Virus record (IMG/VR): IMGVR_UViG_3300042878_001080
Coordinates: 29,329-93,328 of that record
Strand: one strand, 5' to 3'
Source: a virus
Length of the DNA: 64,000 nucleotides
Shown: positions 2,226 to 6,572 of the stretch, piece by piece
How the letters are laid out: each line of letters begins with the position of its first letter
Position numbering within the stretch: position 1 is the stretch's first letter
The notes under the pieces: model-generated
Database searches by the model: none
The model's input: only the letters and a program-made list of their open reading frames with translations
Told to the model about the DNA's origin: nothing
Made by a program: the position numbers and the translations under genes

Positions 2226-3044
2226 ATGTTAAAAAATAGAATTGTAGAGGGTATTGACGAAACAGGTGCTCCGGATGAAAAGTATTACGCTTTTGATTGG
2301 GACGATAATATTGTTTCTATGCCGACAAAGATAATATTAAAAGATGAAGATGGTGATGAGGTTGGAATGTCAACTGAAGATTTTGCAACATATCGAGAAG
2401 AAATTGGTAAAGAACCAGTTGAGTTTGAAGGACACACTATTGTTGGGTTCTCTAACGACCCTTTTAGATGGTTTGGAACTAAAGGTGATAAACAATTTAT
2501 TGTTGATTCAATGACCGCAAAACCAGGTCCTGCTTGGCCGGATTTTGTTGAAGCAATTAATAATGGTTCAATATTCTCAATCGTAACAGCAAGAGGGCAT
2601 ACACCTTCAGTTTTAAAAGAGGCTTGTTACAATTATATTGTATCTAATTTCAACGGTATTAATTCTAATGAATTAGTTAGAAATTTAGAAAAATATAGAG
2701 ATTTAACGGATGAAGAAAACACATCTAAAAGAGAAATGATTAGAGAATATTTAGATTTATGTCGTTTTTATCCTGTAACTTATGGAGAAGGTTCCGCAAC
2801 AAATCCTGAACAAGGTAAAATCAAAGCATTAGATGAGTTTGTTGAGTATGTTAAAGATATATCTAACTATATTCAAAAAGAAGCATTTTTAAAAAATAAA
2901 ATAAATAATTATTTTGTACCTAAAATAGGTTTTTCAGATGACGACTTAAAAAATGTGGATGTAGTGAAAAAACATTTTGAACAAGACCCAGAAAATATTA
3001 TTAAAACATATTCAACCGCTGGAGGAATTAAAAAAGAATATTAA
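2226..3044 (+). CDS. HAD-superfamily hydrolase/phosphatase
   Basis: A 272-aa protein with all four HAD motifs visible: motif I FDWDDN with the nucleophile pair Asp24/Asp26, motif II Thr121 in VTARGH, a lysine (Lys198 or Lys200) for motif III, and motif IV FSDDD at 236-240. The HAD family mostly hydrolyses phosphate esters, for example nucleotides or nucleic-acid 3' phosphates. Substrate cannot be read from the sequence; a nucleotidase or DNA-end phosphatase is a reasonable guess for a phage. It sits alone between the sheath terminator and the repeat-rich gap before the tail tube gene, so it interrupts an otherwise structural operon. The ATG is preceded by an A-rich leader without a Shine-Dalgarno sequence. 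Confidence 0.8.
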   Translation: MLKNRIVEGIDETGAPDEKYYAFDWDDNIVSMPTKIILKDEDGDEVGMSTEDFATYREEIGKEPVEFEGHTIVGFSNDPFRWFGTKGDKQFIVDSMTAKPGPAWPDFVEAINNGSIFSIVTARGHTPSVLKEACYNYIVSNFNGINSNELVRNLEKYRDLTDEENTSKREMIREYLDLCRFYPVTYGEGSATNPEQGKIKALDEFVEYVKDISNYIQKEAFLKNKINNYFVPKIGFSDDDLKNVDVVKKHFEQDPENIIKTYSTAGGIKKEY

Positions 3045-3046
3045 AA

Positions 3047-3054
3047 TATTTATA
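3047..3054 (+). promoter_or_regulatory. TATTTATA motif at head of tandem repeat
   Basis: A copy of the recurrent TATTTATA core begins 3 bases after the HAD stop and runs directly into the 14-bp repeat array. It matches the motif found before most transcription units here, but no gene starts within 230 bases, so its activity is doubtful. Confidence 0.3.
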
Positions 3055-3151
3055 AATAAAAATTATTAAATAAAAATTATTAAATAAAAATTATTAAATA
3101 AAAATTATTAAATAAAAATTATTAAATAAAAATTATTAAATAAAAATTATT
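3054..3151 (+). repeat. Tandem array, seven perfect copies of a 14-bp unit
   Basis: The unit AAATAAAAATTATT is repeated seven times without a mismatch (7 x 14 = 98 bp), followed by a degenerate eighth copy from 3152. The array lies in the 244-base gap between the HAD gene and the tail tube gene. It contains only A and T. A 14-bp period is not a whole number of helical turns, and no coding frame runs through. It may be a slippage-prone spacer, a binding array or a DNA-unwinding element; nothing in the sequence decides between these. Confidence 0.95.
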
Positions 3152-3238
3152 AAATAAACTATTAATATAAAAACTAGGATTTCTAGAATGATAGATATTT
3201 TAATTCTAAAAGTCAAGTAAAAAAAATTAAATAGGTAA

Positions 3239-3288: not shown

Positions 3289-3777
3289 ATGGCTGATTTA
3301 TTAATGAAAATGCCCATACCGTATGAACCGAAAAGACAAAATAGGTTTATTGTACGATTCCCTTCTACATTAGGGATTAACGAATGGTTCGTAGAATCTG
3401 CCGCTAGACCACACATAACAATCAAAGACGTTGAAATACCTTTTTTAAATACTTCAACTTATGTTGCTGGTAGATTTACTTGGGGTACTATGAATGTTAA
3501 ATTCCGTGACCCAATTGGACCTTCAGCGTCACAAGCTCTTATGGAGTGGGTTCGTTTATGTGCTGAGTCTGTTACAGGTCGTATGGGGTATGCTGCGGGA
3601 TACAAAAAAAATATTGACCTTGAGATGTTAGACCCAACAGGTGTTGTTGTGGAAAAATGGATTTTAGAAGGTTCTTGGTTAAGTGATGTTAATTTTGACG
3701 CTTTACAGTATAGTTCAGACCAATTAGCAACAATTTCAACAACTATTCGTATGGATAGATGTGTATTAGTTTATTAA
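3289..3777 (+). CDS. 19: Tail tube protein, gp19-like
   Basis: A 162-aa protein, the same size as T4 gp19, which polymerises into the inner tail tube. Visible family features are the N-terminal RFIVRFPSTLGI strand, the conserved PHITIKDVEIPFLNTSTYVAG region, and the C-terminal strands WILEGSWLSDVNFDALQYSS leading into an MDRC end typical of the tube fold shared with gp48/gp54. It is bracketed by a candidate promoter and a very strong terminator, so it is probably transcribed as a single gene, which fits the high copy number of tube protein. The order sheath, tube, chaperone, tape measure is standard for contractile tails. Confidence 0.93.
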   Translation: MADLLMKMPIPYEPKRQNRFIVRFPSTLGINEWFVESAARPHITIKDVEIPFLNTSTYVAGRFTWGTMNVKFRDPIGPSASQALMEWVRLCAESVTGRMGYAAGYKKNIDLEMLDPTGVVVEKWILEGSWLSDVNFDALQYSSDQLATISTTIRMDRCVLVY

Positions 3778-3790
3778 TTTATAAAAATTA

Positions 3791-3834
3791 AAATAAAATA
3801 CCCCTACATTTAATTATGTGGGGGTATTTTATTT
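3791..3834. terminator. Strong bidirectional hairpin terminator after tail tube
   Basis: AAATAAAATACCCC (3791-3804) pairs perfectly with GGGGTATTTTATTT (3821-3834). Five further pairs (one T-G wobble) extend the stem inwards to a 6-base loop at 3810-3815. The A-tract on the left arm and T-tract on the right arm make it functional in both directions. Confidence 0.9.
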
Positions 3835-3880: not shown

Positions 3881-4636
3881 ATGGAACAAAGTTTAATAGA
3901 TGCTGGAACACAAAATTTCAGCTTACCACACGATATGGTTCAATTACCGACAGATGGGGTTTTTTATAAATCAAAAAAGAAAGCGGTTAAAATTGGTTAT
4001 TTAACAGCAAATGATGAAAATTATTTAATTGGTGCTGGTCGTAGTAGTGAAAACATTATTTTAAAATTATTGAGAAATAAAATGTACGAACACGACTTAC
4101 GTCCTGAAGAACTTTTAGATGGTGATGTTGAGGCAATATTAATCTTTTTAAGAAATACTTCTTTTGGTTCAGAATATAGTCTTAATTTAATTGACCCAGG
4201 AACTGATAAACCATTTGTTGGTACAATTACTTTAGATGAGTTAAATTTTAGAAAAACGAATGTTAAACCGGATGAAGATGGTACATTTACCACTAAATTA
4301 CCAAAAACTGGTGTTACAGTAAAATTAAAACCAACAACTTTTAATGATACAATTGATTTAGATAAAATGGCTGAACAATATCCCGTTGGTCATCAAGTGC
4401 CAAGAATTACTTGGAAATTATTAAAACATATTGTTGAAATTGATGGTAATACTGATAGAACAAAAATAAGTTTATTTATTGATTCCTTACCAATTATGGA
4501 TTCAAAATACATAAGAAAGTTTTTAAAAGAAAATGAACCGTCATTGGATTTAAAAAGAAGTGTAATCGCCCCATCAGGAGAATTGGTATCTTTCGAGATT
4601 GCCTTTGGGGTGGAGTTTTTTCGACCTTTCTTCTAA
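3881..4636 (+). CDS. 26: gp26-like baseplate/tail-assembly protein (zero-frame product)
   Basis: A 251-aa protein between the tail tube and tape-measure genes, the position of tail-assembly chaperones in contractile-tailed phages and of the 26/51/27-29 cluster in T4. The N-terminus reads LPHDMVQLPTDGVFY and the C-terminus has strands ending in GVEFFRPFF, the general pattern I associate with the T4 gp26-type baseplate family (PF12322-like). The zero frame ends at 4634-4636, just after a GAG TTT TTT CGA run. The +1 frame is open for another 50 well-formed codons (see next entry), so the gene probably makes both a short and a frameshifted long product. Role as a chaperone of the tape measure is inference from position and architecture. 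Confidence 0.75.
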   Translation: MEQSLIDAGTQNFSLPHDMVQLPTDGVFYKSKKKAVKIGYLTANDENYLIGAGRSSENIILKLLRNKMYEHDLRPEELLDGDVEAILIFLRNTSFGSEYSLNLIDPGTDKPFVGTITLDELNFRKTNVKPDEDGTFTTKLPKTGVTVKLKPTTFNDTIDLDKMAEQYPVGHQVPRITWKLLKHIVEIDGNTDRTKISLFIDSLPIMDSKYIRKFLKENEPSLDLKRSVIAPSGELVSFEIAFGVEFFRPFF

Positions 4637-4775
4637 TCACCGACAATTATTGATTGAGGAATACTTGTATTTGTCTCAATCAATACACGTTTCATATTCG
4701 GATTTTCATTTGATGCCAACATATGTTCGAAAATATTTAATAAACCGATTAATCGATAATAACACACCAGACTAG
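4623..4775 (+). CDS. Frameshift extension of the gp26-like protein
   Basis: After TTT TTT (4616-4621), a +1 (or -2) shift at TTTTTTC enters a frame coding 50 residues before TAG at 4773-4775. The peptide starts DLSSNHRQLLIEEYLYLS, continues with SYSDFHLMPTYVRKYLINR and ends in an Asn-rich tail. Its helix-then-MP-then-aromatic/basic-helix layout is protein-like and resembles the C-terminal half of tail-assembly chaperones. The frame is open from 4566 but has no ATG until 4713, so independent initiation would lose most of it. Fusion to residue 247 of the zero-frame protein gives about 297 aa by +1. A single-base error or true indel in the T6 run would also join the frames. Confidence 0.65.
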   Translation, partial: DLSSNHRQLLIEEYLYLSQSIHVSYSDFHLMPTYVRKYLINRLIDNNTPD

Positions 4776-4823: not shown

Positions 4824-6572
4824 ATGCCGACCCCAATAGACCCAACAACACCCGCAGATAAATCGAGAGGATTAGGGGAAACTTTATATTCTAATATTAG
4901 TCCTGAAGCAATTGCTAAAGTTGTATTAACACTTGATGCTGCTGCTAGTCAAATGTTACATCAGTTTGGACAAGGTCAAGCTATGTCCGACATTTTGCGT
5001 AAAAGTATGGCAGAATCAGTTACTGATGTTAGAAAACTAGGTGGTGATATTGCGGATGTTCTTAAAACACAACAAGAAGCTTCCTTAGCGTTAGGTAGAA
5101 ATGTTATTTTATCTAATAAAACAACTGAAGATTTATATGCTACGATGAAGGTTACGGGACAATCTGTTAAAGAGATTGTTAGTAATATGGCAGATGCGGG
5201 TATATCATCCGCAAAGGCGACAAATGAAATGTTAAAAGTGGTTAATGTTGCTCGAGAATCTGGTGTAAGTGCTGTAGCAGTTTCTGAAACGGTTTTAAAA
5301 AATATGAATGCTCTTAACAAATATAATTTTGAAGGTGGTGTTGATGGTTTGGCTAAAATGGCGGCACAAGCGACATCGTTAAGAATTGATATGTCTCAAA
5401 CATTAGGGTTTGCTGAAAAAGTGTTTAATCCTGAGGGGGCTATTGAAATTGCTGCTGCGATGCAAAGATTAGGTGTTTCTCAAAGTTCATTACTTGACCC
5501 ATTAAAATTAATGGATTTATCTCAAAATGACCCGGCTGAATTACAGAATCAAATTGCTGAAATGAGCAAACAATTTGTTCAACTTGGAAAAGACGGACAT
5601 TTTGAAATTATGCCGGGGGCAAAACGACAACTGAGAGAAATTTCAAGTGCGATGGGTATAGGTTACGACCAACTTACCAAAATGGCCTTAGGTAGTGCTG
5701 ATTTAGATAAAAAAATGAAAGAAATATCTTTTCCATCAGCAACTGAAGACCAAAAGAAAATGATTGCCAATATGGCAGAAATGGGTACGGGTGGTGAATA
5801 TATGGTTAAATTTACTGATAAAGAAGGTACTTCTCAAGAAAAGGCTGTTTCTGAATTAAATAAAGATGATGTTGCCGCTCTTGAAAAAATGGCTAACACA
5901 GCACCAAAATCGATGGAGGAATTGGCTAAAGACCAATTATCAGCAATACAAGATGTTACTGCAGCAATTAACAGTTTAGGTGATAGAACAGGTTTAGGGT
6001 TAGCTACGAGTAATCTAAGTAGTCAATTATTAAAAGGTGGTAGAAAAATTGGTGAGGCTTTAGGTGAAGTCCCTGGTAAAAATTTATCGGCGAAAAATAT
6101 TGGAAAAGGTGCTGATGAAATTATAAATGATTTAAGTTCAGGGGCTAGTTTAAGTGATGTTTTGAGTAAATTTAAAAATAAATTTATTAATGAATTACAT
6201 ACAGCTTTTGAAAATGTTAATGAACAAATGGCTAAACTAAAAGATGAGGTACCCCTATTCAAGGTGATTAATAGTATTAGTACGGGAACCCCAATAGGAA
6301 ACACTCCAACAAATTCTAGTATACCAAAAGGTAACAATACTACAAATAACTCTCAAACATCAAATAATCCATCAAATGTTAATGTAACATTAACTCATAA
6401 TATTACAGTAACTGCTCCGGTAAATATTGATGGAAAAACAATTGTAGAAGCGTTTAAAAATAATACAGATGTTTCTCAAGCAGTTGCTCAATCAATTAAA
6501 GAAACTTTTACAAATTCTAATTTTGGAATGAATTCAGGTAAAAATGATAAAGTTGGTAATCCATGGAGTTGA
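4824..6572 (+). CDS. 29: Tail tape measure protein, gp29-like
   Basis: A 582-aa, largely helical, Ala/Lys/Met-rich protein, nearly the length of T4 gp29 (590 aa), which sets tail length; this suggests a tail close to T4's. Helical heptad-like stretches run over residues ~20-470, followed by a low-complexity Asn/Ser/Thr/Pro linker (~495-530). The C-terminal segment NVNVTLTHNITVTAPVNIDG is a short beta unit common near the end of tape measures. Position immediately after the tail-assembly gene is diagnostic. No membrane segment or lytic domain is evident. Confidence 0.85.
   Translation: MPTPIDPTTPADKSRGLGETLYSNISPEAIAKVVLTLDAAASQMLHQFGQGQAMSDILRKSMAESVTDVRKLGGDIADVLKTQQEASLALGRNVILSNKTTEDLYATMKVTGQSVKEIVSNMADAGISSAKATNEMLKVVNVARESGVSAVAVSETVLKNMNALNKYNFEGGVDGLAKMAAQATSLRIDMSQTLGFAEKVFNPEGAIEIAAAMQRLGVSQSSLLDPLKLMDLSQNDPAELQNQIAEMSKQFVQLGKDGHFEIMPGAKRQLREISSAMGIGYDQLTKMALGSADLDKKMKEISFPSATEDQKKMIANMAEMGTGGEYMVKFTDKEGTSQEKAVSELNKDDVAALEKMANTAPKSMEELAKDQLSAIQDVTAAINSLGDRTGLGLATSNLSSQLLKGGRKIGEALGEVPGKNLSAKNIGKGADEIINDLSSGASLSDVLSKFKNKFINELHTAFENVNEQMAKLKDEVPLFKVINSISTGTPIGNTPTNSSIPKGNNTTNNSQTSNNPSNVNVTLTHNITVTAPVNIDGKTIVEAFKNNTDVSQAVAQSIKETFTNSNFGMNSGKNDKVGNPWS

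What the first reader, a model, noticed from the sequence alone, without database searches (positions are those of the whole stretch)
4566..4775. Probable programmed +1/-2 frameshift in the tail-assembly gene before the tape measure
The zero frame stops just after GAG TTT TTT CGA. The +1 frame is open from 4566 to the TAG at 4773 and, after the T6 run, encodes 50 residues of ordinary protein-like sequence with no usable start codon before position 4713. Genes between tail tube and tape measure in many long-tailed phages use a programmed frameshift to make a short and a long chaperone. A slip of tRNA-Phe from UUU to UUC (+1), or a -2 slip on the homopolymer (reported for phage Mu on a G run followed by CGA), would produce about 297 or 298 aa. 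If real, it would also suggest that the T4 gp26/gp51 neighbourhood corresponds to the chaperone pair of other phages. That last step is inference.
Basis: partly seen in the sequence, partly recalled or inferred. Interest (0 to 1): 0.78.

Follow-up and report, generated by a model that had tools for sequence, protein, structure and literature searches.

The report
Plus-one frameshift in tail-chaperone gene
This phage very probably makes a short and a long version of a tail-building helper protein by letting some ribosomes slip forward one base at a run of six Ts, in a T4-like protein family where many other members appear to slip backward at nearly the same letters.

Summary
Gene 3881-4636 is a T4 gp26/gp51-type protein (PF12322, phrog_150). 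All 33 distinct junctions among 80 related viral loci keep TTTGGGGTGGANTTTTTTCGNCC and an open +1 frame (one cut by its contig end). Past the stop the +1 frame evolves like a gene (pN/pS 0.29; other frames 1.82 and 0.69). A related tail lies in the +1 frame in a second group (open in 77 of 78 readable loci) and in the -1 frame in a cyanophage group (79 of 80). T4 instead has two genes, gp26 (short) and gp51 (same domain plus a tail); 13 of 15 other records searched had one match, two none. The shift is best read as +1, not -2. That T4-like tail chaperones come as short gene plus fused long gene, and that poly-T -1 shifts occur in them, is in print (Vladimirov 2022, seen only through citing papers). 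What seems new is the +1 branch: the same TTTTTTCG letters as in -1 phages, used in the opposite direction, beside a Shine-Dalgarno-like GGGGTGG. No product was observed; efficiency is unknown.

The parts
3881..4636 (+). Short form (TAC-N, T4 gp26-like), 251 aa, stop TAA 4634-4636
   Evidence: PF12322 33.6 bits (cut-off 24.5) and phrog_150 E 4e-11; only PF12322 match in the 93-kb record
4616..4622 (+). Proposed slip site TTT TTT C in frame 0: P-site UUU (4619-4621) re-pairs with UUC (4620-4622); A-site codon CGA
   Evidence: T run in 28 of 28 unique junctions (27 T6, one T7); A-site codon CGN in 28 of 28 (CGA 11, CGG 7, CGT 6, CGC 4) although AGA is 72% of Arg codons in the window's 36 long ORFs
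4607..4615 (+). Shine-Dalgarno-like GGGGTGGAG just before the T run, candidate stimulator
   Evidence: GGGGTGGA invariant in 25 of 25 aligned variants, last base varies; -9.2 kcal/mol with the anti-SD; reached in 353 of 20,000 synonymous shuffles
4620..4775 (+). +1-frame extension (T domain, TAC-NC tail): TTC then 50 further residues, stop TAG 4773-4775; joined product 297 aa (298 if -2)
   Evidence: pN/pS 0.29 in +1 frame after the stop; best of 1,030 window segments with a tail profile of the second group, E 0.0012; model of 53 residues, pLDDT 90.5, helices 2-24, 28-33, 36-50
3289..3777 (+). Tail tube gene, upstream neighbour
   Evidence: phrog_4542 tail tube E 1e-27
4824..6572 (+). Probable tape measure gene, downstream neighbour (582 aa)
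   Evidence: By position only; no convincing family match; no blastp similarity to the 741 residues compared of the annotated tape measure of phage immuto
3792..3833 (+). Terminator-like hairpin between tube and chaperone genes
   Evidence: -24.0 kcal/mol; a hairpin of -8 kcal/mol or better followed by Ts in 24 of 26 unique group loci with enough upstream DNA; the simple scan listed none

Best explanation
The gene is a T4-type tail assembly chaperone gene. Most ribosomes stop at 4634 and make the 251-aa short form (TAC-N). A minority, with Phe-tRNA on the second UUU (4619-4621) and a CGN Arg codon that is uncommon in this genome waiting in the A site, slip one base forward onto UUC and read GAC CUU UCU... 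to 4775, adding a roughly 50-residue helical T domain (TAC-NC, 297 aa). An SD-like GGGGUGG just upstream probably helps. By analogy with lambda gpG/gpGT, the short form would coat the tape measure protein and the T domain would recruit tail tube subunits. Shown by sequence: the gene family, the conserved site, selection on the +1 frame, and related tails in shifted frames elsewhere. Inferred: the product, the slip mechanism, the SD role and the assembly role.
For: Junction conserved in 33 of 33 distinct variants from 80 loci. Selection: +1 frame pN/pS 0.29 after the stop, against 1.82 (frame 0) and 0.69 (-1), over 28 unique junctions; variation between T6 and stop is wholly synonymous in frame 0. 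Codon constraint at the 3' end: 7 of 9 conserved-residue codons invariant against 27 of 110 in the body, Fisher p 0.002 (28 unique of the 51 genes of equal length). Related tails: +1 versus -1 tail profiles E 3.7e-11; the second group's profile finds the window tail first of 1,030 segments, E 0.0012, next 0.68. Copies: one PF12322 match in the window record and in 13 of 16 other records, two in T4, none by this profile in Mel-JY01 and immuto. +1 over -2: GXN1 GAA TTC TTT CGT, LR756508 AAC TTT CTA and immuto TTT CTT TGG allow +1 but give no matched -2. Fold: best Z to HK97 chaperone 2ob9 5.4, YqbN 3klu 5.3 and 5ir0 4.4; the next rows are at 2.5 and below.
Against: No product was seen and no efficiency measured. 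Z 5.4 is below the tool's safe level, and plain Foldseek gave no PDB match at E 0.001. The +1 tail profile does not match the T4 gp51 C-terminus directly (E 0.29, and 0.11 with a wrong row removed); the link runs through the -1 tails (4.6e-5, then 2.3e-6). The cyanophage and jumbo tail profiles do not find the window tail, and the window-group profile puts other segments first in 10 of the 14 other records, two of them at E 0.006 and 0.013, so E near 0.01 means little here. In GXN1 a second +1 site (CCC C) is as good as TTT C. By its best pairing register the SD-like element lies about 8 nt from the P codon, not the 3 nt recalled for RF2. No conserved downstream RNA structure. The downstream gene is a tape measure by position only.
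Confidence: 0.88

Rival explanations
1. The +1 frame is entered by a -2 slip on the T run (phage Mu style), giving 298 aa.
For: In the window TTT TTT allows a fully matched -2 re-pairing, as do the T6-T7 runs of most relatives; -2 is reported for phage Mu (PMC5009743 passages).
Against: GXN1, LR756508 and immuto reach the tail frame from sites where -2 has no match, while +1 works; immuto's CUU U equals the RF2 slip (recalled).
Confidence: 0.12
2. Transcriptional slippage at the T run makes a mixed mRNA population.
For: T6-T7 runs are kept in nearly all members.
Against: Three of 18 annotated relatives have no run of five Ts (GXN1, LR756508, immuto) yet keep the shifted tail; phase and length of the run are nearly constant within each group; six Ts are short for slippage (recalled).
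Confidence: 0.05
3. The tail is a separate small gene with its own start (TTG 4605 or a later codon) or is made by re-initiation.
For: A TTG lies upstream in the +1 frame in 28 of 28 unique window-group junctions; annotators draw such small genes elsewhere.
Against: No ATG or GTG upstream in the +1 frame in 28 of 28; in the second group 24 of 63 and in the cyanophage group 53 of 53 unique junctions have no ATG/GTG/TTG between the preceding stop and the T run, although aligned residues begin right after FF; T4 gp51 carries a similar tail fused in frame.
Confidence: 0.05
4. Sequencing error or pseudogene: one continuous gene is broken by a homopolymer mis-call.
For: The site is a homopolymer.
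Against: The same run appears in six identical contigs from different metagenomes and in 33 distinct variants, and the variation fits dual coding.
Confidence: 0.01

Closest known systems
T4 gp26 / gp51 (PF12322, phrog_150), the T4-like tail assembly chaperones of Vladimirov, Gautam and Davidson 2022 (paper not seen)
   Same: Same domain family; short form and tailed long form
   Different: T4 has two genes, gp26 short and gp51 with a tail fused in frame; here one gene with a shifted tail
Cyanophage gp26 plus 'gp51' (S-SM1, S-RIM8 and relatives)
   Same: One PF12322 match in S-SM1, the TTTTTTCG letters in most, related tail profile
   Different: Tail is in the -1 frame after T TTT TTC; the T run sits in another phase of frame 0
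Lambda gpG/gpGT and other tail chaperone frameshifts (as told in PMC5009743 passages)
   Same: Short form and longer frameshift form, tail assembly role
   Different: -1 shift in lambda; no sequence relation tested here
+1 frameshifts: Listeria phage PSA tail shaft gene (CCC UGA), haloarchaeal virus HSTV-2 tail gene (very likely +1), RF2 prfB (recalled)
   Same: +1 direction; for RF2 also an SD-like element (recalled)
   Different: Other genes or families and other shift codons (PMC5009743 passages)
Vandenendeviridae phage Adele chaperone, -1 at GTTTTT (PMC12846349 passages)
   Same: T-run shift in a tail chaperone gene, argued from the same kind of comparison
   Different: -1 direction; homology to this family not tested here

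Membership tests
T4-type tail assembly chaperone (PF12322 / phrog_150) | Profile match over the curated cut-off | tested here: met
   33.6 bits against 24.5; phrog_150 E 4e-11
T4-type tail assembly chaperone (PF12322 / phrog_150) | Short form plus long form with C-terminal T domain | tested here: met
   At sequence level only: conserved shifted-frame tail; products not observed
T4-type tail assembly chaperone (PF12322 / phrog_150) | Chaperone fold like HK97 gp13 | tested here: inconclusive
   2ob9 Z 5.4, rmsd 3.4, 83 residues aligned; it and 3klu stand above the rest, but Z is under 8
T4-type tail assembly chaperone (PF12322 / phrog_150) | Gene between tail tube and tape measure | tested here: inconclusive
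   Tube upstream by profile; downstream gene is tape measure by position only
-1 poly-T frameshift subtype (cyanophages, jumbo phages) | T TTT TTC read in frame 0 with tail in the -1 frame | tested here: not met
   Window reads TTT TTT C and its tail is in the +1 frame; the -1 frame runs only 5 codons past the stop
Mu-type -2 frameshift | Two-base backward slip | tested here: inconclusive
   Possible in the window; no matched -2 re-pairing at three homologous sites
RF2-type SD-stimulated +1 frameshift | SD-like element about 3 nt before the P codon (recalled) and a slow A-site codon | tested here: inconclusive
   SD-like element stronger than most synonymous alternatives, but best register about 8 nt from the P codon; the A-site is an uncommon sense codon, not a stop

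The most novel reading that the evidence does not exclude
Within one chaperone family the same TTTTTTCG letters are used in mirror image. One branch (the window group and, with variants of the site, a large second group of uncultured phages and Bacillus, Listeria and Streptococcus phages) reads TTT TTT and shifts +1; in the window group this goes from TTT TTT CG to TTT TTC G. The other (cyanophages, jumbo phages) reads TTT TTC G and shifts -1 to TTT TTT CG. Direction was switched by a change of phase while the tail domain was kept, and the T4 lineage replaced the shift by two genes. This would be a natural case of direction switching at a nearly constant slip sequence.
Probability: 0.65. Interest if true: 0.68.

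Novelty: new variant of a known kind. Interest (0 to 1): 0.58.

Why it matters
A 2016 review names T4 as the exception to conserved tail chaperone frameshifting (PMC5009743 passages). This family suggests that many relatives of T4's chaperones do use a shift, in both directions, at nearly the same letters. It offers a natural set for asking what decides +1 against -1 slipping, explains several small 'hypothetical' or 'gp51 catalyst' genes as tails of the gene before them, and gives a testable junction peptide.

Tried and rejected
Downstream RNA hairpin 4642-4691 as stimulator: not stronger than shuffles (z -0.76; 38 of 200 fold as well), and its arms are lost in more distant group members (read from the alignment). 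Open frame as proof by itself: rejected, 14 of 72 frames, this one included, run as far. Tail against phage records by tblastn: nothing significant (best E 3). Tail against PHROGs and Pfam at E 1: only phrog_22397 at 0.03. Window gene in GTDB genomes by six peptide patterns (close relatives only): no relative. tRNA genes in the 64-kb window: none. RM378: +1 by open frame only; no tail profile recognised it, so I do not count it as support for the tail. The tails of Atu_ph07 and PA5oct were found by none of the three profiles built without them, and neither the cyanophage nor the jumbo profile found the window tail. Plain Foldseek against PDB: no match at E 0.001; in pdb_via only six entries are listed. 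Tree of the N domain: +1 rows are not a clade in the free tree; holding them together is not rejected (p-AU 0.34, tested without LR756511 and RM378). Sister placement of T4 gp26 and gp51 has SH-aLRT 88 with long branches, so the duplication point is tentative.

Papers: ten searches. I saw their listings, and passages of seven papers (PMC3004832; PMC10885494; PMC12846349; PMC11131426; PMC9603447; PMC5009743; PMC3711429). None of what I saw describes a +1 shift in this family. Other listed papers, such as the T4-like genome comparison PMC3037559, were not opened, and the key paper (Vladimirov 2022) is not held, so this is no proof of novelty.

Full report
What is there. The window gene 3881-4636 encodes 251 aa and matches PF12322 (T4 base plate protein; 33.6 bits, cut-off 24.5) and phrog_150 (baseplate hub, E 4e-11). 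It follows a tail sheath gene (99-2168) and a tail tube gene (3289-3777), both by profile, and precedes a 582-aa gene that by position should be the tape measure (no convincing profile match; no blastp similarity to the annotated tape measure of phage immuto). Frame 0 ends GAG TTT TTT CGA CCT TTC TTC TAA. The +1 frame is open 4566-4772 and gives 50 residues after FF. An open frame is not itself evidence: 14 of 72 shifted frames at the ends of 36 long ORFs in the window, this one included, run 46 codons or more.

Close relatives. Of 248 candidate stretches in IMG/VR, 230 encode relatives and the best 80 were kept. They hold 33 distinct junctions, all with TTTGGGGTGGAN TTTTTT CGN CCTTTCTT and an open +1 frame; apart from L063, cut by its contig end, they carry the pattern EE(Y/F)...SY..F..(M/I)PTY.RK.(L/I). 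Six contigs have one identical junction, the window's. In one search, 79 loci (L063 too short) gave 28 unique regions: pN/pS after the stop is 0.29 in the +1 frame, 1.82 in frame 0 and 0.69 in -1; the gene body, from 28 unique of the 51 genes of equal length, is 0.23 in frame 0. The 12 nt between T6 and the stop vary only at frame-0 synonymous sites. The A-site codon is CGN in all 28 (CGA 11, CGG 7, CGT 6, CGC 4), although AGA makes up 72% of Arg codons in the window's long ORFs. Of the last testable codons 7 of 9 are invariant, against 27 of 110 in the body (Fisher p 0.002). These variants are related, so such counts are not independent.

Distant relatives. Reading junctions of named phages by hand gave an open tail in the +1 frame in GXN1, SP-15, LR756508, LIS04, Mel-JY01, immuto and, without profile support, RM378. 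It is in the -1 frame in LR756511, Atu_ph07, PA5oct, Vibrio 2.275, GAP32, RaK2, PBECO4, RAS14, XacN1, S-SM1 and S-RIM8: 7 and 11 of 18. Larger samples: the S-SM1 (cyanophage) group is -1 in 79 of 80 (L159, the exception, lacks the T run at its stop; L165's tail is cut by its contig). In the second +1 group (relatives of Mel-JY01), 77 of 78 loci with a readable stop have at least 97 nt of +1 extension; L197 (85 nt) and L258 (97 nt) are cut by their contigs, two more loci are cut before the stop, and in L221, L250 and L258 the -1 frame happens to be as long or longer. Among unique junctions, T-run phase and length are nearly constant by group: window 27 of 28 T6 in phase 0; second group 60 of 63 T7 in phase 0, 3 T6 in phase 1; cyanophage group 53 of 53 and GAP32 set 10 of 10 T6 in phase 2.

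Are the tails one domain? Profiles were built from 92 unique of 162 +1 tails and 60 unique of 89 -1 tails. +1 against -1 gives E 3.7e-11; -1 against the T4-type gp51 C-terminus 4.6e-5, or 2.3e-6 after removing a mis-framed row; +1 against gp51 directly 0.29 or 0.11, not significant. T4 gp51 also matches phrog_634 'baseplate hub assembly catalyst' with residues 147-246. In cross-searches a profile from the second group alone (64 tails) ranks the window tail first of 1,030 window segments (E 0.0012, next 0.68), and ranks the tail first in SP-15, GXN1, LR756508, LR756511, LIS04 and GAP32 (E 5.8e-4 or better) and weakly in S-SM1 (0.015) and XacN1 (0.037), but not in RM378, Atu_ph07, PA5oct or T4. 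The window-group profile is weaker: first in LR756511 (2.3e-6), Mel-JY01 (0.0022), LR756508 (0.0093) and immuto (0.045), elsewhere not, with off-target firsts down to 0.006. The cyanophage profile finds T4 gp51 (3e-4), GXN1 and Mel-JY01 first (and LIS04 at 0.094); it and the jumbo profile (8 tails) do not find the window tail. The 53-residue tail model is confident (pLDDT 90.5) with helices 2-24, 28-33 and 36-50.

T4. Both gp26 (208 aa) and gp51 (249 aa) are full PF12322 proteins; gp51 has an extra C-terminal tail in frame, and gp26 is followed by no like tail. Of 16 records searched with PF12322, T4 has two matches, 13 have one (RM378 among them), and Mel-JY01 and immuto have none by this profile although tblastn relates their genes. 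The window record, 93 kb and perhaps a fragment, has one.

Mechanism. In the window the second UUU can re-pair one base on with UUC, which matches the usual tRNA-Phe anticodon GAA (recalled). A -2 slip would also fit here, but GXN1 (GAA TTC TTT CGT), LR756508 (AAC TTT CTA) and immuto (TTT CTT TGG) give no matched -2, so +1 is preferred. GXN1 also has CCC C a few bases on, an alternative +1 site. The same three have no T run of five, which speaks against transcriptional slippage. GGGGTGGAN before the run pairs with the anti-SD at -9.2 kcal/mol, against -5.7 for synonymous shuffles (12 related representatives); 353 of 20,000 shuffles of the window's own segment reach it, and 290 of 58,077 9-mers inside the window's long ORFs do. 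The second group shows only a slight excess of SD-like pairing there. No conserved downstream structure was found. Comparing phases: the window group reads TTT TTT CG and moves to TTT TTC G, while the cyanophage and most jumbo phages read TTT TTC and move to TTT TTT C, mostly with G next: mirror images on one set of letters. The second group (TTT TTT TGG), RAS14 and XacN1 (TTT TTT A) and others differ in detail.

Function. The predicted N domain (pLDDT 87) has as best solved matches HK97 tail chaperone 2ob9 (Z 5.4), YqbN 3klu (5.3; an XkdN-like chaperone by recall) and 5ir0 (4.4), the next row at 2.5; plain Foldseek gave nothing significant in PDB. In lambda, gpG binds the tape measure and the T part of gpGT binds the tube protein (PMC5009743 passages). 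I assign the same role here by analogy.

Known or new. A 2016 review states that G-T frameshifting is widely conserved except in T4 and lists -1, -2 and +1 uses (passages). The PRFect paper says some T4-like phages carry one short gene and one longer fusion (passages), and the Adele paper says poly-T -1 signals are known in T4-like chaperone genes (passages). Both cite Vladimirov 2022, which is not held. So a two-gene T4-like arrangement and the -1 shift are known. I met no description of the +1 branch, its UUU UUU CGN site or the SD-like element in the listings or in the passages read, which cannot exclude that paper.

Tree. On the N domain (69 rows) the four states need four changes; 37 +1 rows fall together with one -1 row, LR756511, which has a long branch (support 89). 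Without LR756511 and RM378 the +1 rows are still not a clade in the free tree, and holding them together is not rejected (p-AU 0.34). gp26 and gp51 of T4-like phages are sisters with support 88 and long branches.

Noticed in passing
3792-3833: Strong terminator-like hairpin between the tube and chaperone genes (-24.0 kcal/mol); one of -8 or better in 24 of 26 unique group loci and 27 of 68 of the second group, with changing sequence. SP-15 has an annotated terminator between the same two genes. It may lower chaperone expression relative to the tube.
   Followed up: partly
L099 3073-3255 and L100 3115-3252: Annotated cyanophage 'gp51 baseplate hub assembly catalyst' lies in the -1-frame continuation of gp26, started at an internal codon; probably not an independent gene.
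   Followed up: yes
L091 3348-3458, L085 4740-4859, L088 3695-3931, L089 3888-4010: Small hypothetical genes in public records that coincide with the shifted tail or its end.
   Followed up: partly
3050-3160: Tandem copies of a 14-base AT-rich unit upstream of the tube gene, seen by eye.
   Followed up: no
2226-3044: 272-aa gene with a DWDDN motif resembling HAD-type phosphatases (from memory), inside the tail module between sheath and tube.
   Followed up: no
L159 2001-2704: The one locus of the cyanophage group without the T run near its stop; an upstream indel is likely, assembly error or real break not told apart.
   Followed up: no
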